NCBI RefSeq assembly: GCF_002025255.2
Contig: NZ_CP054587.1
Coordinates: forward strand, 744,001-808,000
Direction: 5' to 3'
DNA: 64,000 bases
Origin: Halolamina sp. CBA1230
Lineage (GTDB): Archaea; Halobacteriota; Halobacteria; Halobacteriales; Haloferacaceae
Positions 38,091 to 47,544 of the stretch are shown here, piece by piece. Below the pieces are notes generated by a model that saw only the letters and a program-made list of their open reading frames with translations, was not told the DNA's origin and made no database searches. Each line of letters begins with the position of its first letter. Position 1 is the first letter of the stretch. Both the position numbers and the translations under genes were made by a program.

Positions 38091-38186
38091 GTGGTTTTGT
38101 GCGGGCTTTTCGGGAAGTGATCGCGGTGGGTCTCTCGGTTCGTTGACTACTGCATCAGCGACCGCGACCGCAACAACATCTCGAAG

Positions 38187-38438
38187 CATGACCACTTGTG
38201 ACCGCAATGTGCCGGACACGAGGTCCGGCACAGCATGGAATCCCCACCCCTCCCCCCGCGGCCGGCGACAGGTGCCGGCCGCGAGGCGTCCACCGCGACC
38301 GCACCGCCGCCGCGGTCGGCGCGAAACGCTCGCGGCTCCGTCCGCGAGCAGGCGCGAGGGATGAGCGAACGGATGTGAGCGAATCGGTTGGGGAGGTCTG
38401 TGGGCTGTGCGGGGCAGTTGCGGTCGCAAGTGGTCATG
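38187..38438 (-). repeat. Structured intergenic repeat element, architecture B, copy 1
   Basis: A 252-bp element bounded by terminal inverted repeats of 21 bp with one mismatch (38187-38207 and 38418-38438, outer sequence CATGACCACTTG). Inside are three perfect hairpins: 8 bp at 38209-38231, 10 bp with a 7-base loop at 38257-38283, and 8 bp with loop CTCCGT at 38328-38349. The right part (about 38318-38423) is the reverse complement of the core in the elements at 4221 and 52078. It fills most of the 550-bp gap between the M50 gene and purM. I see nothing else in 38091-38186. Confidence 0.85.
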
Positions 38439-38442
38439 CTCA

Positions 38443-38533
38443 CTCCGCGGTCGTGTTGGCGGTCGGGACACCGAACTCCGCGGTCGTGTTGGCGGTCAGG
38501 ACACCGAACTCCGCGATTAAGACACCGAACCTC
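38443..38533. repeat. 33-bp tandem repeat next to element B copy 1
   Basis: A partial unit (38443-38469), one complete 33-bp unit (38470-38502, beginning ACCGAACTCCGCGG), then a shortened unit (38503-38523) and the first ten bases of another (38524-38533). The units abut with no spacers, so this is not a CRISPR array. The same 33-bp period occurs beside the second B element at 47321-47414. Confidence 0.8.
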
Positions 38534-38640
38534 ACACTCGTCGAAACGACGAGCACCACCCAAACACGGAGCCGACACCCACCCAACACCACTACGAAGG
38601 GAGCGGAGGACTTTTGCGCGACCCTCCCGCCGCTTCGGAC

Positions 38641-39621
38641 ATGACCGAAGAGGAGGGGCTGACCTACTCGGAGGCGGGCGTCGACATCGCCGACAGCGAG
38701 GCGGCGACGGCCGCGCTGGTCGGCGCCGCCGGCGCCGCGGGCGAGGGCACCGACAGCGACTACGCCGGCTTACTCGACATCGGCGACCGCTACCTCGCGC
38801 TGGCGACCGACGGCGTCGGCACCAAACTCCTCGTCGCGGAGGCGATGGAGGACTACTCCACCGTCGGCATCGACTGCATCGCGATGAACGCCAACGACCT
38901 CGTCGCCGCCGGCGTCGACCCCGTGGCGTTCGTCGACTACCTCGCGGTCGACGACCCCGACGAGACGTTCGCCGAGCAGGTGGGCGAGGGGCTCGCCGCC
39001 GGCGCCGAGGCGGCGGACCTCCAACTCGTCGGCGGCGAGACGGCGGTGATGCCCGAGGTCGTGAAGGGCCTCGACCTCGCGGGCACCTGCGCGGGGCTGG
39101 CCGCGAAGGACGCCGTCTTCCCCGGCAACGCCGAGGTCGGCGACGCGCTGGTGGGCTGGGAGTCCTCCGGCATCCACTCCAACGGCCTGACGCTCGCCCG
39201 CGAAGCCGTCACTCGTGAGTACCAGTACACCGACCCCTACCCGGGCGAGCGCTACGACGCCGTCGGCGACGCGCTCCTCGAGCCGACGCGGATCTACACG
39301 GACCTCCTGGAACCGATGCAGGACCACGGCGTCCGCGCCGCGGCGCACGTCACCGGCGGCGGCTGGACCAACCTCGAACGGCTCGGGGAGTACCACTACG
39401 AGATCGACGACCCGTGGCCCCAGCAGGAGGTGTTCGACTTCGTGCAGGACCTCGGCGACGTGAGCGACGAGGAGATGCATCGAACGTTCAACATGGGCAC
39501 CGGGTTCGTCGCCGCGGTCGACCCCGAACGCGCGGACTCGCTCGTCGGCGAGACCGAGGGCCGCGTGATCGGGCGCGTGGAGGAGGGCGAGGGCGTCGCT
39601 ATTCGCGGGCTGGAGCTGTAG
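38641..39621 (+). CDS. purM: Phosphoribosylformylglycinamidine cyclo-ligase (AIR synthetase)
   Basis: 326 residues, normal for PurM. It closes FGAM to aminoimidazole ribonucleotide with ATP in purine synthesis. Signatures: YSEAGVDI at the start, LATDGVGTK near 57, IDCIAMNANDL, LVGGETAVMPEV and HVTGGGWTNLERL near 240. The ATG lies 37 bp after an ACTACGAAGG stretch. The only upstream DNA is repeat element B and its 33-bp array, so its promoter must lie within or next to them. Confidence 0.95.
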   Translation: MTEEEGLTYSEAGVDIADSEAATAALVGAAGAAGEGTDSDYAGLLDIGDRYLALATDGVGTKLLVAEAMEDYSTVGIDCIAMNANDLVAAGVDPVAFVDYLAVDDPDETFAEQVGEGLAAGAEAADLQLVGGETAVMPEVVKGLDLAGTCAGLAAKDAVFPGNAEVGDALVGWESSGIHSNGLTLAREAVTREYQYTDPYPGERYDAVGDALLEPTRIYTDLLEPMQDHGVRAAAHVTGGGWTNLERLGEYHYEIDDPWPQQEVFDFVQDLGDVSDEEMHRTFNMGTGFVAAVDPERADSLVGETEGRVIGRVEEGEGVAIRGLEL

Positions 39622-39696
39622 CGGGACTGTTGGTTCCCTATCGGTTCGGCGTTCTCGTAGCCGTTAGTGAGGTGGGCGAACTGACCGGAGTGGCGT

Positions 39697-39873
39697 TTAT
39701 CCGTACTTCTCGACGGCGGGAAGCACGACGAATCGAGAGAGAACGAGGCCGAGCACGGCGCCGAGGGCGAGAGAACCGAGCGTGGGGAGCGGTTCAGGAG
39801 GTACAAATCCCAGCACCACGTTCGCACAGAGGATTATTAGGAGGAACGTGATCATCAGGTTTCGCAAATCCAT
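39697..39873 (-). CDS. 58-residue two-helix membrane protein
   Basis: A very short gene reading MDLRNLMITFLLIILC, then a loop with PPEPLP, then a second hydrophobic helix (about 33-53) and the polar end VEKYG. Two membrane helices with a short Pro-rich turn and a basic N-terminus give a clear hairpin topology. On this strand GATATGTATC lies about 15-25 bp upstream and could serve as promoter. No family is recognised. The frame and composition are far better than the longer overlapping alternatives, which have stretches of Ser/Pro/Arg typical of shadows. Confidence 0.6.
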   Translation of the reverse strand: MDLRNLMITFLLIILCANVVLGFVPPEPLPTLGSLALGAVLGLVLSRFVVLPAVEKYG

Positions 39874-39989
39874 CGTTCACTCACTGATACATATCTGGAT
39901 GGATAGCTCCGACGGATTCGTGCACTCGTCCCGAGACGAAGAGGTCCGAGGCTCGCGACGTGAACCTCTCCGTACCTGCAGAACGGAAG

Positions 39990-40529
39990 CTACGAGAGGT
40001 GACTCGCGATGTCGGCTTCCGTGATGATCCCCGCCGCCTCGCCGCCGTCGGTGACGATCACCGCCTTGTAGTGGTCGAGCAGGTTCCGGATCTCGTCGAC
40101 GGTCGCGTCGGTGCCGACCGTCGGGAACGACTCGCTCATCACCTCCGCCACGGGCAGGTCGCCGACGTTTTCGCCGGCGTGGACCACGTCGGACTGGGAG
40201 ATCGACCCCACCGGAACGCCGTTCTGGATCACCGGCAGCTGTGAGTACGCCTCCTCGTCCATCAGGTCGACCGCGTCGCTGACCGAGTCGTCCGGGCCGA
40301 CGTTGACCACGGTCTCGTGCATCAGGTCGGCGGCCCGAACCACCTCACCCTCGGCCTCGTCCAGCGCCTCGACGATCCGCCGCAGCGTCGAGAGTCGCGG
40401 GTCGACGTCGTCGTTCTCGACGCGGGCGATCAGCGGCTGGGAGACCCCCGCGCGCTCGGCCAGCGCCGACTGCGTCATCCCCACCTCGTTCCGCCGCTCG
40501 CGCAGGTCCTCGGGTGTCGGGAGCTCCAT
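39990..40529 (-). CDS. XRE-type HTH regulator with paired CBS domains
   Basis: 179 residues. A Cro/CI helix-turn-helix lies at about 8-55 (RRNEVGMTQSALAERAGVSQPLIARVEN). Two CBS domains follow at about 66-120 and 125-178, which would sense an adenine nucleotide or S-adenosylmethionine. This HTH-CBS fusion is widespread in archaea. On the minus strand the promoter region reads CTTTCAAATTACC about 25 bp before the start. The targets are unknown. Confidence 0.88.
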   Translation of the reverse strand: MELPTPEDLRERRNEVGMTQSALAERAGVSQPLIARVENDDVDPRLSTLRRIVEALDEAEGEVVRAADLMHETVVNVGPDDSVSDAVDLMDEEAYSQLPVIQNGVPVGSISQSDVVHAGENVGDLPVAEVMSESFPTVGTDATVDEIRNLLDHYKAVIVTDGGEAAGIITEADIASHLS

Positions 40530-40578
40530 GGCGGGGAATAACTACTGGTAATTTGAAAGCGTTTCGGAAACCCGGGGG

Positions 40579-40950
40579 TTACTCGGCGGTCGCGCCCTGG
40601 TCGCCCTCCTCGGTCTCGACGGTCTGGATGACCTCCAGCGGGACGTCACGCAGCGCGCCGCCGACCTCGCTTTTGGCGATGCGGGTGGCGTGCTCCTCGT
40701 TCTCGGCGTTGAAGATGTCGATCTCGAGCACCAGGCCGACGAGGGCGGTGCTGGCGGCGATAAAGGCGGAGTCGAACGGCTCGCCACAGGCCGGGCAGTC
40801 GGTCAGGCCGACCTCGACGTCGACGTACTCCTTGTCGGCCTCGTTGAGACGCCGGCCGGACTCGGAGACGGCGACGCCGATGGCGTCGTCGATATCCTCG
40901 ACGTCTCGCACGAGCCACGCAGCCTCCATCACGACGTGATAGTTGCCCAT
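40579..40950 (-). CDS. UPF0212/DUF555 family protein
   Basis: 123 residues with the archaeal UPF0212 layout: MGNYHVVMEAAWLVRDVEDIDDAIGVAVSE, one CPACG pair near residue 53 and GGALRDVPLEVI near the end. A single C-x2-C may form half of a zinc site in a dimer. The function is unknown. The ATG at 40950 matches the family's usual start; the frame is open farther upstream without family-like sequence. Confidence 0.85.
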   Translation of the reverse strand: MGNYHVVMEAAWLVRDVEDIDDAIGVAVSESGRRLNEADKEYVDVEVGLTDCPACGEPFDSAFIAASTALVGLVLEIDIFNAENEEHATRIAKSEVGGALRDVPLEVIQTVETEEGDQGATAE

Positions 40951-41102
40951 ACAGGTACTCCTCCACCAGCAGGCAAAGTTTCGTTGGTTCGCCGGCGTGA
41001 GCGAGGCCTCGCAGTCGTCGTCGAGGGCGTCAGTCGTCGCTCGCCCCCGCGGGTCGCCCTTCCGCTGGGGGTTGCGGCTGTCCCGCTCCGCCGTCCGGGG
41101 GA

Positions 41103-41531
41103 TCAGGTCCGTTTCCACGTCCACCGGGAGTCGAGCACGTAGCGGTAGACGCCGCTGAGCAGGATGGCGACCGCGTTTGCCAGCAGGTACTGGACGTCGC
41201 GGAAGTCGACCAGCGCGTACAGCACCGCCAGCTGGATCGGGATCGCCGTCCCCCGCACGACGTTCGTCTTCAGCAGGCCGGTGAAGTACGCGCCCCACCC
41301 AGAGTTCTGCATCGACGCGAACGTCCACGCGTTGTTGAGCACGTACGTCAGCACGATGGTGATCTCGATCGCGACGGTCGCGCCAACCAGGTAGTTCACC
41401 TCGCCCACGTCGACGAACAGCCAGAGCAGCAGCATCTGCACCCCCGCCGTGGAGGTCCCGACGATCACGTACCGCCGGAGCCGGACCGCGAGCGGACCGC
41501 TCACGAGGTTGCGGAGGAACGCGCGGACCAT
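41103..41531 (-). CDS. GtrA-family membrane protein
   Basis: 142 residues with four transmembrane helices in the GtrA arrangement. Conserved elements are RYVIVGTSTAGVQ at the first helix and YVLNNAWTF near the end of the second, plus a basic WTWKRT tail. GtrA proteins are thought to flip lipid-linked sugars for cell-surface glycosylation. It begins directly after the stop of the sulfatase gene (TAG then ATG, no gap), so the two are one operon. Confidence 0.88.
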   Translation of the reverse strand: MVRAFLRNLVSGPLAVRLRRYVIVGTSTAGVQMLLLWLFVDVGEVNYLVGATVAIEITIVLTYVLNNAWTFASMQNSGWGAYFTGLLKTNVVRGTAIPIQLAVLYALVDFRDVQYLLANAVAILLSGVYRYVLDSRWTWKRT

Positions 41532-43001
41532 CTAGCGGTAGCCCAGCGCCTCCAGTCGGTGTTCGAGCTCCTCGTCGACGCCGTCGGCCTCACTCGCCGC
41601 GTCACCGTCGGCAGCACGGAGTAGCTCGGCGTGCGCATCGGCGAGCCCTTCGAACTCCTCGAGCACGGCTCGGGCCTCCGGCGTCGGGTCGTCGATCAGG
41701 TTCTCCTGCTGGGTCGGGTCGTCGGGCCGGAAGTACAGTTCGCGGTCGCCGGCGCCGTCCCGGTCTCCCGACGCGACCTCCTCGCCCGCGTCCACGTTCT
41801 CGATGTACGTCCAGTCCCGGTCACGAACGCTCACCAGCAGGTCGCCGTCGTCGAGCGAGCGCGGGATCGGCTGGCTGGTCACCGTCTCGCCGCGGACCGT
41901 GACCGACACCACCGGCTCGTCGGCTGGCGTCTTGCCGTCGAGCACGCTCGGTGCGACGCTTCGCCCCTGCCAGGCGTCGGGCGCGTCGGCGCCGAGGAGG
42001 TCGGCCACCGTCGGCGGGATCGCGTCGAGGCCGACCTGACGCTCGACCCGTCCGCCGTCGCGGCCGGGCACGTCGACGATGAAGGGGACGTGAACGAGTT
42101 CGTCGTACAGTTTGGGGTAGTGAGCGAGGTGGCCGTGTTCCTGAAACTCCTCGCCGTGGTCGCCCGCGACGACGACCGCCGTCTCGTCGTCGACGCCGGC
42201 GGTTTCGAGCGCGTCGAGCACGCGACCCACGCTGGCGTCGACCTGCCGGACGGCGGCCTGATACAGCGTCCGGAGATCCGCGAGGGTGCGCTCGCCGACG
42301 TTCCAGCCCAGCCCCGTCCGGGTGTGGGCGTGGATCATCCGGTGGGTGCCGAGCAGACCGTCGGACACCTCGCGGATGTACCGCGGCGCCGGGACGTACG
42401 GCGTGTGGGCGTCCATGTAGTGGATCCAGAGGAAGAACGGCTCCTCGACCGACTCGACGTAGTCGGTCGCGGCGTGTTCCACGTCGAACATCCGCGAGGT
42501 GTCGAGGAACGGCCGGTCGTCGGTGCCGCCGCGGAGCCACGAGCCGATCCGGCGGATCGGCGAGGTGGCGAACTGGAGCCACGCCTCGACGGTCGGGTGG
42601 GTGGCGAGATACTTGCTGTAGATGCTGGAGCCGACGCCGGTGACGAACGACTCGAACTCGTCGAACCCGTCGTCGTACCCCCAGTGGGAGGTGAGAAAGC
42701 CGTTGGCGGCGTTGAACCCCGCCGTCGAGAACCCCGCATCCGAGAGCGTCTCCGCCAGCGTCTCCACCCCCTCGACGCCGATGCGGCCGGTGTCGGCGAA
42801 CACCGGGCGGGACGCCATGATCGACGGGAACGAGAACGGCGTCCAGTTGCCGGTGGCGAACGCGTGGTCGAACGTCGTCCCGCGGTCGGCGAGGCCGTCG
42901 AGCACGGGCGTGTGGCGGTCGTCGTCGTACGCGCCGACAGCGTCGGCCCGGAGCGAGTCGACCGTGACGAGCACGACGTTCGAGATGTCGGTGTCGGTCA
43001 T
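41532..43001 (-). CDS. Sulfatase/alkaline-phosphatase superfamily enzyme
   Basis: 489 residues. Metal-binding parts are VVLVTVDSLRADAVG near 9-23, IHYMDAHTPY near 200 and VVAGDHGEEFQEHGH near 290. The usual sulfatase nucleophile motif C/S-x-P-x-R is replaced by NWTPFSFPSIMAS near 51-63, so the nucleophile may be Ser or Thr and the enzyme may act as a phosphodiesterase or phospho-transferase. With the adjoining GtrA it may modify a cell-surface glycan. The start is the ATG at 43001; no signal peptide is visible. Confidence 0.85.
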   Translation of the reverse strand: MTDTDISNVVLVTVDSLRADAVGAYDDDRHTPVLDGLADRGTTFDHAFATGNWTPFSFPSIMASRPVFADTGRIGVEGVETLAETLSDAGFSTAGFNAANGFLTSHWGYDDGFDEFESFVTGVGSSIYSKYLATHPTVEAWLQFATSPIRRIGSWLRGGTDDRPFLDTSRMFDVEHAATDYVESVEEPFFLWIHYMDAHTPYVPAPRYIREVSDGLLGTHRMIHAHTRTGLGWNVGERTLADLRTLYQAAVRQVDASVGRVLDALETAGVDDETAVVVAGDHGEEFQEHGHLAHYPKLYDELVHVPFIVDVPGRDGGRVERQVGLDAIPPTVADLLGADAPDAWQGRSVAPSVLDGKTPADEPVVSVTVRGETVTSQPIPRSLDDGDLLVSVRDRDWTYIENVDAGEEVASGDRDGAGDRELYFRPDDPTQQENLIDDPTPEARAVLEEFEGLADAHAELLRAADGDAASEADGVDEELEHRLEALGYR

Positions 43002-43164
43002 GGTGAGGACCTCCGCCGACTGGTGGCTTGACACTCCCCTGGAGTGAACGGCCGGCGCTATCGACGGAGACGTGCGTATACGTACTCTCCCGCGCTCCGG
43101 GGGGATAAGTACCACCATCTCGGAGGCGTCGGCGTTTTCCCGTGGCTCCTCGAACGGCCACCGA

Positions 43165-44130
43165 ATGGACGGGAAAGCGCTGCTCCAGCGCCGACAGGTC
43201 GCGATCTACGCCGTCGCCGTGCTGCTGGCGGTCGCCGCCGGTCTCGGCCGCCCGGCGACGGCGTCGGTCGTCGAGCGGTTCATCGACCCGGTGCTGGCGC
43301 TGCTGCTGTACGTCACGTTCCTCGAAGTGCCGTTCGTCCGGTTCCGGCGCGCGTTCCGCAACCGTCGGTTCGTGGCGGCGGCGCTGGGGGTGAACTTCCT
43401 GGTCGTCCCCATCGTGGCCTGGCTGCTCACGAGACCGCTGCCGGCAGAGCCGGCGCTGCTCGTCGGGGCGTTCCTCGTGCTGCTGACGCCGTGTATCGAC
43501 TACGTGATCACGTTCACCGACCTCGCGGGCGGCGACGCCGAGCAGGTCACCGCGACGACGCCGGCGCTGCTGCTCGTCCAACTGCTGGCGCTGCCCGTCT
43601 ACCTCTGGCTGTTCGTGGGGCCGACGGTCGCGACGGCGATCGATCCACGGCCGTTCGTCGAGGCGTTCCTCCTGATCATCGCCCTCCCGCTGGCGCTGGC
43701 GTGGGCGACGGAAGCGTGGGCGGAACGCTCGCCCCACGGTACGTCGTGGCAGACGGCGATGGGGTGGCTCCCGGTGCCGATGCTCGCGGTCACGCTGTTC
43801 GTCGTCATCGCCTCGCAGCTCCCCCGCGTGTGGAGTTCGATCGACCAGATCGCGACCGTCGTCCCCGTCTACGTCGCGTTCCTGCTCGCCATGCCGCCGA
43901 TCGCCGGGGTCGTGGGCGCGCGGCTGGATCTGCCCGTGGGCGAGCGCCGCGCGCTCGTGTTCACATCGGTGACACGGAACTCGCTGGTGGTGCTGCCGCT
44001 GGCGCTCGCGCTGCCGCCGGCCTATCAGTTGGTGCCGGCGGTAGTCGTGACGCAGACGCTGGTGGAGCTGGCGGGGATGGTGACGCTGACGCGGGTGGTG
44101 CCGCGCTGGCTGGTGCCGGGAGAGGCGTAG
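43165..44130 (+). CDS. BASS/ACR3-like membrane transporter
   Basis: 321 residues with about ten transmembrane helices. The arrangement resembles the bile acid:sodium symporter/ACR3 superfamily, with LTPCIDYVITFTDLAGGD at the first crossover helix (about 115-132) and TSVTRNSLVVLPLALALP at the second (about 270-288). True ACR3 arsenite exporters have a Cys at the first site; here the Cys is present in PCIDYV. The substrate is therefore uncertain: arsenite or an organic anion. Confidence 0.75.
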   Translation: MDGKALLQRRQVAIYAVAVLLAVAAGLGRPATASVVERFIDPVLALLLYVTFLEVPFVRFRRAFRNRRFVAAALGVNFLVVPIVAWLLTRPLPAEPALLVGAFLVLLTPCIDYVITFTDLAGGDAEQVTATTPALLLVQLLALPVYLWLFVGPTVATAIDPRPFVEAFLLIIALPLALAWATEAWAERSPHGTSWQTAMGWLPVPMLAVTLFVVIASQLPRVWSSIDQIATVVPVYVAFLLAMPPIAGVVGARLDLPVGERRALVFTSVTRNSLVVLPLALALPPAYQLVPAVVVTQTLVELAGMVTLTRVVPRWLVPGEA

Positions 44131-44247
44131 TGGCTACCGACTCTCCTGCTGTTCGACCCGGTCAGGTAGCGAAAACCCACATCCACAGTGCCGAAACGAA
44201 CCGATTGGAACCACCAATGGGGAGTTAGTGGTAAGTTTCTTCTTTCG

Positions 44248-44255
44248 TGGTACCA
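44248..44255. promoter_or_regulatory. Palindrome TGGTACCA before the AbrB-PIN pair
   Basis: An 8-bp perfect palindrome 11 bp before the antitoxin start at 44267. AbrB-type antitoxins commonly bind palindromes over their own promoter, so it is a reasonable but unproven operator. Confidence 0.35.
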
Positions 44256-44266
44256 TATCCTCGTCT

Positions 44267-44512
44267 ATGTCAGCAGAGACGGACGGCCAGGGGCGGCTGT
44301 ACATCCCGAAGGAAGTGCGCGAGAAGTACGGCCAGAAGTACCACATCGTTCTGTACGAGGACAGAATCGAGCTGATCCCGGTCGCGGACGACCCACTCGC
44401 CGCTGTTCGTGAGGCAGCAGGCGAACTCCACGACACAGCAGTCGAGGATGTTCGAGAGGATATCGAGTCGGAGGCCAAAGCCGAGGCTGGGAAGGCCGGC
44501 GACGACAGATGA
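44267..44512 (+). CDS. AbrB/SpoVT-type antitoxin
   Basis: 81 residues. The swapped-hairpin DNA-binding domain (about 3-45) reads DGQGRLYIPKEVREKYGQKYHIVLYEDRIELIPV, the archaeal VapB/AbrB form. The rest is an acidic helix that would wrap around the toxin. Its ATGA overlaps the PIN gene's start by 4 bp, the standard antitoxin-toxin arrangement. The start is the ATG directly before the domain. Confidence 0.87.
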   Translation: MSAETDGQGRLYIPKEVREKYGQKYHIVLYEDRIELIPVADDPLAAVREAAGELHDTAVEDVREDIESEAKAEAGKAGDDR

Positions 44513-44895
44513 CGGTGTACGTCGAGACGGATTTCCTGCTGGCACTCGCCAAAGACACTGAATGGCTGCAGGGCTCCGCGGAGGACGCTCTCACCGAGTA
44601 CGCCGTCGAAACGTCACCGTTCTCGTATCTCGAACTCCTGCTCGCCCGGGAACGCTACGAGTTCGACTACGTTCCGCTGGTGGCGAACCTGCTCGAACTC
44701 GTCCCCGTGCGGGACGAGGAAGAGAAACAGGTCGTGCTGAAAGCCGTCAACTACTACGACGAGGGGATGACACCGTTCGACGCGTTCCACGCGGCCACTG
44801 CGGAAACGCGAGGGGTGGACGTCCTCTCCTCCGAGAACGAGTACGAGGATATCGAGGTCGAACGAGTCCCGCTCGAACCGACCGACGACGAGTAG
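44509..44895 (+). CDS. PIN-domain RNase toxin (VapC-like)
   Basis: 128 residues. The four acidic positions expected for Mg2+-dependent PIN ribonucleases are visible: D8 in VYVETDFLLALA, E42 in SYLELLL, D91 in TPFDAFHAA and D104 or E109 in VDVLSSENE. Such toxins cut tRNA or rRNA when released from the antitoxin. The N-terminal ETD is typical of archaeal members. Convergent with the chorismate mutase gene. Confidence 0.87.
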   Translation: MTVYVETDFLLALAKDTEWLQGSAEDALTEYAVETSPFSYLELLLARERYEFDYVPLVANLLELVPVRDEEEKQVVLKAVNYYDEGMTPFDAFHAATAETRGVDVLSSENEYEDIEVERVPLEPTDDE

Positions 44896-44912
44896 CGTCG
44901 GCCCGTTTTCGG

Positions 44913-45203
44913 CTACCGACTCTCCCGCTGCTCCACCTTGTTCAGTTCGATCAGCAGCCGGAAGATCGCCTTCACCAGGTTCGAGTCGACATCGAAACGC
45001 TCGGCGTTCTCGCCGGCGCGGTCCATCACCGCCTGCTCCTGGTCCTCGTCGGTGGTCGGGAGCCCCTGCTCCGCCTTCACGTCGGCGATGGTGTCGGCGA
45101 CGTACGTTCGCTGGGCGATGAGCTCGACCAGCTCCTGATCGATCTGCTGGATCTCCTCGCGCAGTTCCTCCAAGGTCATGTCGTCGGGCGTTCGCTCGGT
45201 CAT
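44913..45203 (-). CDS. Chorismate mutase (AroQ class)
   Basis: 96 residues, all helical. The conserved LREEIQQIDQELVELIAQRTYVADTIADVKAEQGLP spans the first two helices and contains Arg and Lys residues for binding chorismate. It converts chorismate to prephenate, towards Phe and Tyr. It overlaps shikimate kinase by 4 bp (45200-45203), giving an aromatic-synthesis operon. Confidence 0.93.
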   Translation of the reverse strand: MTERTPDDMTLEELREEIQQIDQELVELIAQRTYVADTIADVKAEQGLPTTDEDQEQAVMDRAGENAERFDVDSNLVKAIFRLLIELNKVEQRESR

Positions 45204-46087
45204 AGATATCTCCCTCCAGTCGCGCGTGTCCGCGTCCGCAGCGTCTCCCCCGGTCGTTCGCTCCAGCGGTCCTCGACCGCTTCCAGCCCCTCGGGATCGC
45301 CGACCGCGACGACGCTCGGCCCCGTGCCGGAGAGCGAGACGCCGTCGGCGTGGGGCATCGCTTCCACCGCCGGCTCGGGGTCGAACCCCAGCGCCGCAGA
45401 GAACGCGAGCCCGTTGACCGTCATCGCGGTCCCGTACTCGCCGTCGAGCGCGAGTTCCTCCACGAGTCGGGCCATCGGCGCGACCAGTTCACAGCGCTCG
45501 GCGTCGGCGTCGGCGGAGTACGCGCGTTCGGGCGGCGTCCAGACGAGCGCGTTCCAGTCGACTTCTTCGCGGGCGAGCAGTTCGTCGGCGGTGTTGTCGG
45601 TGACTGTGAGCCCGCCGAGCATCGACGCGCTGGCGTCGTCGAACGCGCCGGTGACGGTGACGCCCGCCGCCCGCGCCGCCTGCACGCCGAGCCGGCAGGC
45701 GTCCTCGTGGTCGACGATCCCCGCGAGCCCGAGCGCGTCGGCGGTCGCGAGTACGGCCGCGTTCGCGGCCGCGGAGGAACTCTTGAGCCCCGCGGCGGTC
45801 GGCACCTCGCTCTCGGTTCGGACCGTGCCGCCGACGGTCTCAGGCTCCGGGAGCGCCGCGGTCGCGGCCGGGTCGTCGCCCCACTCCTCGGCCGCGAGGG
45901 CCACGCAGCGCTCGATCAGCTCGGTGTCGGCGTCGGGCTGGCCCTCGATCTCGCCCGCGACCGTCCCGGAGTCGTCGAGTTCGACGTGGGCCGCGGTCTC
46001 GAAATCGAGCGCGAACGCCGACCCCCGGCCCGTGGCGAGCGCGTTGAGCACCGTGCCCGCACCGGGCGCGGCGGCGTGGCCGTCCAT
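45200..46087 (-). CDS. aroK: Archaeal shikimate kinase (GHMP family)
   Basis: 295 residues. It is unrelated to bacterial AroK but performs the same step, phosphorylating shikimate with ATP. GHMP signatures: the ATP loop VPTAAGLKSSSAAANA near 93-108 and the C-terminal SLSGTGPSVVAVGD near 255. The N-terminal APGAGTVLNALATGRGSAFALD is characteristic of the archaeal family. Overlaps chorismate mutase downstream. Confidence 0.92.
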   Translation of the reverse strand: MDGHAAAPGAGTVLNALATGRGSAFALDFETAAHVELDDSGTVAGEIEGQPDADTELIERCVALAAEEWGDDPAATAALPEPETVGGTVRTESEVPTAAGLKSSSAAANAAVLATADALGLAGIVDHEDACRLGVQAARAAGVTVTGAFDDASASMLGGLTVTDNTADELLAREEVDWNALVWTPPERAYSADADAERCELVAPMARLVEELALDGEYGTAMTVNGLAFSAALGFDPEPAVEAMPHADGVSLSGTGPSVVAVGDPEGLEAVEDRWSERPGETLRTRTRATGGRYL

Positions 46088-46153
46088 ATCCGTACTGGAA
46101 CGGGTCCGGGGCTTGAAGCTGGTGGTCGCGACGGTTCGGCGGTGTCGGCGGGG

Positions 46154-46933
46154 TTACAGCAGCCGCGCGCCCTCGGTCGAGACGCGTGTGCGGTTCGCCA
46201 GCACGCCCTCGCAGTCGACGGCGACGACCGTCTCGCCGAGCATCGCCATCGTGGCCGCGCCGCCTGCTTCCTCGACGCGGGCCACGTCGTCGACGACTCG
46301 GTCCGTCGGGAGATCCAGCGCCTGCGCGAACGGCCACGAGCGCTCGACCACGTCCCGCAGCGTCGGCGGGGCGGGCAGCGCGTCGAGCACGGCGCCGCCC
46401 TCCTCGCGAACGCGATCCATCAGCTCCTCGTCGGCCAGCGCGTCGGCGGTCGAGAGCCCGCCGTAGGAGACGTACTCGACGGCCTGATCGGTCTCGACAC
46501 GCTGCCGGCCGTCGCCGACGTTGTACAGCAGCCCGCCAGCGTCCTGGATGAACACGTCGCCGAGTCCGGTTCCGGCGGCGACTTCGGCCTCGTGACTGTG
46601 TTCGACGAGGTGGTCGCGCGGGAGCGCGAGCTCGTACAGTTCGTTCGCGGCGAGCGCGGTCGCGAGCGTGGCGGCGCCGCTGGCGCCGAACCCCGCGCCG
46701 AGGGGGACCTGTGGCTGCACGTCGACCGCCGCGTCGACGCCGAGGCGGTCGAGTACGCGCTCGACTGGTTCGAACGCCGCCGGCTCGCCGTCGACGGTCA
46801 CCGTGCTCTCGGGCGCTTCGTCGACGCTGACGGTCACGCCGTCCGCGAGTGCGACGCTGGCGCCGCGGGAGCCGGACTCGATCTGGTCGGGGGCGAACAC
46901 GGCCGTCACGCTGGCCGGGGCGAAGGCGTCCAT
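46154..46933 (-). CDS. Pantoate kinase (GHMP family, archaeal CoA pathway)
   Basis: 259 residues. It carries the GHMP ATP loop QVPLGAGFGASGAATLATALAANEL near 78-102, HEAEVAAGTGLGDVFIQDAGG near 115-135, and an N-terminal SVTAVFAPDQIESGSRGASVAL typical of the archaeal pantoate kinases that replace bacterial pantothenate synthesis order. It would phosphorylate pantoate for 4'-phosphopantothenate. It lies 66 bp upstream of shikimate kinase on the same strand, so co-transcription is likely. Confidence 0.9.
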   Translation of the reverse strand: MDAFAPASVTAVFAPDQIESGSRGASVALADGVTVSVDEAPESTVTVDGEPAAFEPVERVLDRLGVDAAVDVQPQVPLGAGFGASGAATLATALAANELYELALPRDHLVEHSHEAEVAAGTGLGDVFIQDAGGLLYNVGDGRQRVETDQAVEYVSYGGLSTADALADEELMDRVREEGGAVLDALPAPPTLRDVVERSWPFAQALDLPTDRVVDDVARVEEAGGAATMAMLGETVVAVDCEGVLANRTRVSTEGARLL

Positions 46934-47068
46934 GGGTCGGGGGTGGGGAGGAGTGTAGTTGAATCCGTGTGGTTCCTCGCTGTTCTCGGTTCTCGATTGG
47001 TGGTGTAGTCGTCTTTCGTGACGAGATTGGTTGCGTTGACCGCGACGGCAACAGCATCTCGATCGTAG

Positions 47069-47312
47069 ACCACTTGTGACCGCAGTGTGCCGGGCACGAG
47101 GCCCGGCACAGACCGTGATTCCCCACCCCTCCCCCCGCGCTCGCCGACCGCTGGCGAGCGCGAGGCGTCCACCGCTACCGCACCGCTACGGCTGTCGGCG
47201 CGCGACGTGAGAGCGACGGCGCGAACGAGCGCGCGAGGGACGAACGACCGAAGGGAGTGAGTCGGTTGGGGAGGCCTGAGGGCTGTGCGGCGCGGCTGCG
47301 GTCACAAGTGGT
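47069..47312 (-). repeat. Structured intergenic repeat element, architecture B, copy 2
   Basis: A 244-bp element with perfect 17-bp terminal inverted repeats (47069-47085 and 47296-47312, ACCACTTGTGACCGCAG). It repeats the hairpins of the 38187 copy with paired base changes: 8 bp at 47087-47109 and 10 bp with a 7-base loop at 47136-47162. The internal core is about 47190-47290 with CGGTTGGGGAGG. It lies in the 611-bp gap between pantoate kinase (minus) and rpo11 (plus). The parts of the gap at 46934-47068 and 47415-47544 show only promoter-like DNA. Confidence 0.85.
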
Positions 47313-47320
47313 CATGCTCA

Positions 47321-47414
47321 CTCCGCGGTCGTGTTTGCAGTCCAAAACACCGAACGCCGCGGTGCTGTTCGCGGCTGAAACACCGAACGTCGCGGTGACG
47401 TTCGCGGTCGCTGT
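47321..47414. repeat. 33-bp tandem repeat next to element B copy 2
   Basis: A partial unit (47321-47348) and two full 33-bp units (47349-47381 and 47382-47414) begin ACCGAACG and contain CGCGGT. The period equals that beside the first B element, but the sequence differs at many positions, so each array has been homogenised or has drifted separately. Confidence 0.8.
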
Positions 47415-47544
47415 CGTCGATCGCCCAGAGCGGCCGGAGTCGTTACGAAACCGGACTACCGTCAACTCATCGAACCGCCAGAACCCACGAACGAACGGTA
47501 TCGGAGACGAAACACTCAAACGCCGACCCCGACAACCCGAATCC

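What the first reader, a model, noticed from the sequence alone, without database searches (positions are those of the whole stretch)
38187..47312. Architecture B has terminal inverted repeats and covarying internal hairpins
Both B copies are bounded by inverted repeats with core ACCACTTGTGACCGCA (21 bp with one mismatch at 38187/38418; 17 bp perfect at 47069/47296). Inside, an 8-bp hairpin keeps loop CACGAGG while its closing pair changes A-T to G-C. A 10-bp hairpin with a 7-base loop (38257-38283, 47136-47162) changes three pairs at once, each on both arms. MITE-like ends plus conserved stems suggest either a non-autonomous mobile element or a structured RNA.
Basis: seen in the sequence. Interest (0 to 1): 0.75.

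Follow-up and report, generated by a model that had tools for sequence, protein, structure and literature searches.

The report
Haloarchaeal mobile-type repeat with laddered hairpin
The two sequences are copies of a non-coding repeat found about 70 times in this salt-loving archaeon's chromosome, present at a genomic site in some species and missing in others, and its core, found throughout its order, keeps an unusual hairpin of two normal base pairs alternating with two G-A pairs although the letters have changed, so the folded shape is what is being preserved.

Summary
In detail: inverted repeats, hairpins and compensatory changes are at the stated coordinates. The genome is a Halolamina; the ~245-bp element occurs at about 70 intergenic places on its main contig, none found on the three smaller contigs. 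All six other Halolamina genomes carry it. Orthologous gaps are filled in some species and empty in others, so it has been gained or lost, but no clean target duplication and no transposase between matching ends was found. The inverted repeats vary independently; the internal hairpins covary almost perfectly. The 3' part (hairpins HP3 and HP4 plus GGYTGGGGAGG) is shared across the order: exact pattern in 125 of 293 genomes, control 0, none in about 164 other genomes of the phylum. HP4 is a ladder: Watson-Crick dinucleotides alternating with invariant tandem G-A pairs, capped by GNA, GNNA or GNAB loops. It can form on one strand only. Those loop types are the known stable DNA ones, and orientation to neighbouring genes is random, so I favour a DNA-level, REP/SMR-like mobile-type repeat over a structured RNA; nearest-neighbour energies point the other way, so this is open. 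Neither a demonstrated MITE nor a known Rfam RNA. New variant of a known kind.

The parts
38187..38207 (+). copy 1, left terminal inverted repeat (core ACCACTTGTGACCGC 38191-38205)
   Evidence: sequence; 35 exact genome copies of the core
38209..38231 (+). copy 1, hairpin HP1 (loop CACGAGG)
   Evidence: sequence; pairing above every shuffle over 47 copies
38242..38257 (+). copy 1, C-rich motif CCCCACCCCTCCCCCC; predicted to pair with TGGGGAGG of the 3' part
   Evidence: conserved in nearly all copies; predicted pairing only
38257..38283 (+). copy 1, hairpin HP2, whole stem variable between copies
   Evidence: 20 distinct 8-bp stems in 38 copies, 8.00 of 8 paired vs 3.87 shuffled
38318..38359 (+). 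copy 1, hairpin HP3 and start of the order-wide core (GGCGCG..GCGCGAGG)
   Evidence: alignments
38360..38385 (+). copy 1, HP4 G-A ladder hairpin GATGAGCGAACGGATGTGAGCGAATC
38386..38396 (+). copy 1, conserved GGTTGGGGAGG
   Evidence: order-wide pattern
38418..38438 (-). copy 1, right terminal inverted repeat
   Evidence: sequence
38439..38520 (+). 3' flank module, imperfect tandem ACTCCGCGGTCGTGTTGGCGGTCGGGACACCGA; one of two flank types found outside the inverted repeat
   Evidence: 19 of 52 copies carry this type 3', 30 the CGAGATGCTG type
38091..38642 (.). whole intergenic region M50-like peptidase / purM; the gap is only 39-60 bp in four relatives
47069..47085 (+). copy 2, left terminal inverted repeat
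   Evidence: sequence
47087..47109 (+). copy 2, hairpin HP1
   Evidence: sequence
47121..47136 (+). copy 2, C-rich motif
   Evidence: sequence
47136..47162 (+). copy 2, hairpin HP2
   Evidence: sequence
47197..47238 (+). copy 2, hairpin HP3 region
47239..47263 (+). copy 2, HP4 ladder GACGAACGACCGAAGGGAGTGAGTC
47264..47274 (+). copy 2, GGTTGGGGAGG
47296..47312 (-). copy 2, right terminal inverted repeat
   Evidence: sequence
46934..47544 (.). whole intergenic region mevalonate-pathway kinase / rpo11; the gap is about 105-135 bp in five relatives

Best explanation
The element is the Halolamina form of a dispersed, non-coding, mobile-type palindromic repeat that runs through the order Halobacteriales. 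SHOWN: many copies, intergenic, gained or lost between species, a mosaic of hairpin modules; an order-wide 3' core whose HP4 hairpin is kept by compensatory change as a strand-specific ladder of Watson-Crick dinucleotides and tandem G-A pairs capped by GNA/GNNA/GNAB loops; inverted-repeat ends that do not covary. INFERRED: the hairpins are kept because the G/A strand folds as single-stranded DNA (exposed in replication, repair or transposition) and is recognised by a trans-acting DNA-processing protein that spreads copies; the inverted repeats are separate duplex sites (protein binding or crossover); recombination between copies swaps modules. The protein is unknown and is apparently not the IS200/IS605 Y1 transposase. 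It works like bacterial REP/REPIN repeats and Haloquadratum small mobile repeats.
For: Copies and family. Presence/absence at orthologous gaps. Module gain/loss inside hairpins between orthologous copies (site 3: 57-bp double hairpin inside HP1 in G000 only; site 0: one inside HP3 in G004 only; sites 18, 19); half of 52 copies carry such inserts. HP4 covariation: 98.8% of cells paired vs 73.8% shuffled, covariation score 0.788 vs 0.289, 0/500 shuffles reach either, slid controls at most 42%; G-A slots 165/166 in Halolamina. Order-wide core: 125/293 genomes, control 0; 0 of about 164 other genomes of the phylum. Loops: 125 of 158 triloops are GNA, 124 with pyrimidine-purine closing; of 62 tetraloops 22 GNYA, 22 GNAB, 10 GNRA, 0 UNCG; GNA and GNNA loops make extraordinarily stable DNA mini-hairpins with a sheared G-A pair (PMC4686876), GNNA and GNAB tetraloops are stable in DNA (PMC8373063). 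Ends do not covary: 72 differences vs 73.6 shuffled. Orientation to genes random: 13 same / 19 opposite in Halolamina, 29 / 24 elsewhere. Enriched between convergent genes, 31/69 vs 29/147, p 0.0002.
Against: Nearest-neighbour energies make HP4 stable as RNA (-7.6 kcal/mol sense vs -2.6 antisense) and marginal as DNA (-1.0); DNA parameters may undervalue sheared G-A steps and GNA loops, but this was not shown. G-T/G-U is tolerated more than A-C in HP4 (9 vs 1), as expected for RNA too. No mobilising protein was identified. Nearly all comparable sites are shared by G000 and G004, so no recent transposition is shown.
Confidence: 0.55

Rival explanations
1. A structured RNA: each copy (or the order-wide core) is transcribed and acts as RNA, for example as a small RNA or a 3'-UTR stability, termination or protein-binding element; tandem G-A pairs would be ordinary RNA sheared pairs.
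For: HP4 is far more stable with RNA than with DNA parameters and only on one strand; whole element z -5.8 and -6.0; G-U tolerated; preference for gene 3' ends.
Against: No orientation bias to neighbouring genes in 32 (Halolamina) plus 53 (other genera) tandem sites. Loops are GNA/GNYA/GNAB, not GNRA/UNCG. No Rfam family at gathering threshold or with a relaxed E-value (one weak chance match). About 70 scattered intergenic sites with presence/absence between species is unusual for an RNA gene family.
Confidence: 0.27
2. A classical MITE: inverted-repeat ends recognised by a DDE transposase of an IS with the same ends; hairpins are passengers.
For: Inverted-repeat ends at most copies, no gene inside, high copy number, presence/absence between species.
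Against: No clean target duplication; no correctly oriented pair of matching ends 0.6-6 kb apart in the listed hits; the order-wide core outside Halolamina lacks these ends in the two genomes read; tightly covarying hairpins are not expected of passengers.
Confidence: 0.08
3. No selected function: palindromes kept symmetric by the mutation process (template switching, gene conversion between copies), copies spread by recombination.
For: Perfect but sequence-variable HP2 stems; mosaic copies and apparent swap of element halves at site 4 between G000 and G004; haloarchaea are polyploid (general knowledge).
Against: Template-switch correction would turn G-A mismatches into perfect pairs, yet both arms keep GA at 165 of 166 slots while flanking pairs change freely; the same ladder is kept in many genera.
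Confidence: 0.1

Closest known systems
Small mobile repeats (SMR-A/SMR-B) of Haloquadratum walsbyi (PMC3119063)
   Same: Haloarchaeal, short, non-coding, inverted-repeat ends, no target duplication seen, multi-copy; SMR-A insert inside palindromes of other elements, as the double-hairpin modules do here; one Haloquadratum plasmid is free of SMRs, as the small contigs here are of this element.
   Different: SMR-A are about 110 bp and copies of a type are commonly over 95% identical; this is about 245 bp, roughly 72-88% identical between copies, with several hairpins and an order-wide laddered core. No such hairpin is described in the passages of that paper that were read.
Bacterial REP / BIME / REPIN repeats
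   Same: Dispersed intergenic palindromes; in Halolamina enriched between convergent genes; 30 of 95 copies in other genera lie in inverted pairs in one gap.
   Different: Much longer; no GTAG/CGTC tag seen; no association with a Y1 (RAYT-like) transposase; a tandem G-A ladder is not described for REPs to my knowledge.
PATEs (palindrome-associated elements related to IS605), Haloquadratum (PMC3119063)
   Same: Non-coding, palindromic, no target duplication.
   Different: PATEs lack inverted-repeat ends and are related to IS605-type elements; no such relation was found here.
DNA mini-hairpins such as d(GCGAAGC), GNA/GNNA loops (PMC4686876)
   Same: The commonest HP4 caps are C[GAA]G, C[GGA]G and C[GCA]G.
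   Different: Those are short synthetic fragments; here the motif caps a genomic repeat.

Membership tests
MITE (non-autonomous DDE element) | terminal inverted repeats | tested here: met
   52 elements with paired ends
MITE (non-autonomous DDE element) | target-site duplication | tested here: inconclusive
   no duplication readable at filled/empty gaps; divergence is high
MITE (non-autonomous DDE element) | a related autonomous element with the same ends | tested here: not met
   no correctly oriented distant pair of ends among the listed hits of the own genome; other genomes were not searched for it
Haloquadratum small mobile repeats (SMR) | inverted-repeat ends unrelated to known transposons, non-coding | tested here: inconclusive
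   ends confirmed; comparison with an IS database was not possible
Haloquadratum small mobile repeats (SMR) | no target duplication | tested here: inconclusive
   none seen
Haloquadratum small mobile repeats (SMR) | sequence relation to the HqIRS SMR families | not testable with these tools
   HqIRS sequences were not at hand
REP / REPIN | short palindrome with GTAG or CGTC tag | tested here: not met
   no such conserved tag in the alignment
REP / REPIN | accompanying Y1 (RAYT-like) transposase | tested here: not met
   absent in G001 and G002; of 56 genomes with ten or more core copies 37 have one and 19 none, against 186 of 293 overall
REP / REPIN | occurrence in inverted pairs | tested here: inconclusive
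   30 of 95 in other genera
Rfam RNA family | score above a family's gathering cut-off | tested here: not met

The most novel reading that the evidence does not exclude
An order-wide archaeal repeat system whose recognition unit is a single-stranded DNA hairpin written in a shape code: fixed tandem G-A steps and GNA-type caps with free but paired dinucleotides between them, read by a still unidentified haloarchaeal DNA-processing protein that spreads it without Y1 or DDE hallmarks.
Probability: 0.3. Interest if true: 0.82.

Novelty: new variant of a known kind. Interest (0 to 1): 0.62.

Why it matters
Haloarchaeal intergenic DNA holds many purine-rich GAGCGAAGCGAG-like strings. Here many of them resolve into one structural rule that is conserved, strand-specific and traceable across an order. 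If it acts as single-stranded DNA it is a rare natural case of selection for a DNA hairpin with non-canonical pairs, and it makes the open question of how haloarchaeal small mobile repeats move testable: find the protein that binds the ladder. If it acts as RNA it would be an undescribed, widespread archaeal RNA motif. Practically, copies lie at an inversion junction in a relative and could mislead gene calling and assembly.

Tried and rejected
Rfam at gathering threshold and with relaxed E-value: nothing. IMG/VR scan for the core: 0, so no sign of phage carriage. Y1/IS200 transposase as mobiliser: presence does not track the core. Whole-stem reading with the terminal inverted repeats as a paired RNA stem: predicted by folding but the arms do not covary, so dropped. 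Sense 3'-UTR element: a first sample of 30 loci gave 16 same vs 5 opposite orientation (binomial p about 0.03), but six high-copy genomes gave 13 vs 19 and the sum was 29 vs 24, so not supported. Clustering of element strand along the chromosome: none (33 runs vs 35.5 expected). Target duplications: not readable. A distant search of plasmid records gave only short matches in three Halorussus/Halobaculum plasmids. Literature: no description of the core found in ten searches of open papers; absence there is weak evidence.
Full report
WHAT WAS CHECKED. Every coordinate in the finding was read from the sequence and is right. The window is G000:C1:744001-808000 of a 3.47-Mb genome of four contigs. 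So the genus is Halolamina.

COPY NUMBER AND PLACE. A similarity search finds the element at about 40 places among the candidates scored. The 15-base end core has 130 hits with up to two mismatches against 15 for the control. The core-plus-end criterion gives 69 copies, all but one of them clear of called genes, and the exact order-wide core pattern 74. Every listed hit lies on the 2.90-Mb contig C1; all end matches with at most one mismatch do. If copies fell at random, none on the other 0.56 Mb would have a chance of about 2-5 in a million, with the caution that one search lists only the first 100 places and one search scored 40 candidates. Copies are enriched between convergent genes (31/69 against 29/147, p 0.0002) and depleted between divergent genes (6/69 against 33/147, p 0.014). 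Gene calls come from a simple codon-position model made here, not from an annotation.

ANATOMY. From 5' to 3' in the orientation of the window copies: an outer flank (usually CAACAGCATCTCGANNNNNG), the end ACCACTTGTGACCGC, hairpin HP1, CCCCACCCCTCCCC, hairpin HP2, GAGGCGTCCACCGC, hairpin HP3 (GGCGCG..GCGCGAGG), hairpin HP4, GGYTGGGGAGG, a G-rich stretch, and the inverted end. Half of 52 copies carry further modules, mostly two perfect hairpins joined by a short linker such as TGGCAG, sitting inside HP1, HP2, HP3 or next to HP4. A second type (e.g. 623362, 1148871, 1650770, 2251549) has a different HP1 side.

MOBILITY. At the purM gap the element is in G000, G003 and G004; the gap is 39-60 bp in G001, G002, G005 and G006. 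At the rpo11 gap G001, G002, G003, G005 and G006 are empty; in G004 the two gene sides lie about 55 kb apart in inverted order with an element at each junction. Of 20 further sites searched, G004 is filled at nearly all comparable ones; G005 is empty at about nine and filled at four; G003 is empty at four. These counts come from gap lengths together with elements hit; nine of these sites were read as sequence in an empty genome. So presence differs between species, but nothing shows movement within a species. No target duplication could be read, and the empty gaps are shorter by more than the inverted-repeat unit, so flank modules came too. Orthologous copies in G000 and G004 differ by whole modules: a 57-bp double hairpin in HP1 at site 3 is only in G000, one in HP3 at site 0 only in G004.

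STRUCTURE. HP2: 39 copies, 20 distinct 8-bp inner stems among 38, all fully paired; exchanging arms between copies leaves 3.87 of 8 (stems were picked as the best hairpin of each copy, which favours pairing, but the exchange control shows that the arms belong together). HP1 also exceeds all shuffles (362 Watson-Crick pairs against a mean of 304, maximum 322). By contrast the two end repeats differ at 72 positions against 73.6 expected for unrelated partners (p about 0.39), so they are not kept as a stem.

HP4 is the most informative part. In 19 distinct 33-nt copies of this genome, nine pairs give 98.8% paired cells against 73.8% in shuffles, covariation score 0.788 against 0.289, 54 double changes against 19.2; no shuffle of 500 reaches these, and sliding the partners gives at most 42%. 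Between the paired dinucleotides both arms read GA, at 165 of 166 slots. The form is GAY (GA NN)n loop (NN GA)n RTC. Seven of nine pairs show changes on both sides. The shuffle control ignores relatedness of copies, so the slid control and the independent genera matter. In 198 sequences from other genomes the same holds: 33-nt class 515 Watson-Crick of 585 against 339 shuffled (maximum 373), 25-nt class 84 of 91 against 65. Some families carry another form, an internal loop GAGNANCGCA on both sides, which breaks the ladder.

STRAND AND MOLECULE. G-A pairs become C-T on the complement, so the ladder exists on one strand only. With RNA energies the G/A strand beats its complement in 48 of 48 Halolamina copies (-7.6 vs -2.6 kcal/mol); with DNA energies the difference is small (-1.0 vs -0.8). 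Loops say the opposite: 125 of 158 triloops are GNA; tetraloops are 22 GNYA, 22 GNAB, 10 GNRA and no UNCG. GNA and GNNA loops give exceptionally stable DNA mini-hairpins (PMC4686876) and GNNA/GNAB tetraloops are stable in DNA as GNRA is in RNA (PMC8373063). If RNA were selected, GNRA should be favoured over GNYA; it is not. Orientation to neighbouring genes is random. I lean to DNA but the two lines conflict.

DISTRIBUTION. The exact core pattern occurs in 125 of 293 Halobacteriales genomes, up to 88 copies, control 0, in none of about 164 genomes of other orders of the phylum, and in no IMG/VR contig. Outside Halolamina the element starts at GGCGCG, lacks the ACCACTTGTGACCGC ends in the two genomes read, and 30 of 95 copies share their gap with an inverted partner.

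MOBILISER. Y1_Tnp is absent in G001 and G002 and only broken in G004. Of 56 genomes with ten or more core copies, 19 have no Y1_Tnp (e.g. G065, G068, G075, G144), a rate like that of all genomes (tallied by hand from the two tables). No enzyme is proposed by name.

VERDICT. Real, and larger than reported: a mosaic, mobile-type, non-coding repeat; the closest known kinds are the small mobile repeats of Haloquadratum and bacterial REP/REPIN elements. The laddered hairpin with DNA-type caps appears to be undescribed in the open papers searched.

Noticed in passing
G004:C1 about 1947800 and 2003000 (L148, L149), orthologous to window 46934-47544: Gene order is inverted between these points relative to G000, with a copy of the element at each junction, as if two copies had recombined.
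   Followed up: partly
G000 C2-C4 (0.56 Mb): No copy of the element was listed on any contig other than the main one, although IS200-type transposases are present there.
   Followed up: partly
L162-L171 and other loci of G075, G144, G187, G205: A second form of HP4 with a symmetric internal loop GAGNANCGCA / GAGNANCGCA around a short stem (e.g. GATGAGCATCGCAGGCCGAAGGCCGAGAAGCGCAATC); its pairing rule was not worked out.
   Followed up: no
window 38439-38520, 47313-47410: Imperfect tandem ACTCCGCGGTCGTGTTGGCGGTCGGGACACCGA repeats abut the right end; this module also flanks other copies, sometimes on the left.
   Followed up: partly
order-wide core, GGYTGGGGAGGYGTGTGG and G-rich tail: Run of GG tracts resembling a two-tetrad G-quadruplex; could matter for single-stranded DNA function. 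Not tested.
   Followed up: no
L154-L183 (30 loci, mostly the first hit of each genome): In this sample the G/A strand ran with both flanking genes 16 times and against 5 times, unlike six high-copy genomes (13 vs 19).
   Followed up: partly
G000:C1:623362-623705 versus G004:C1:1728450-1729100 (L194): The orthologous site holds the second element type in G000 and the first type in G004, sharing the 3' half: apparent exchange of half an element between copies.
   Followed up: no
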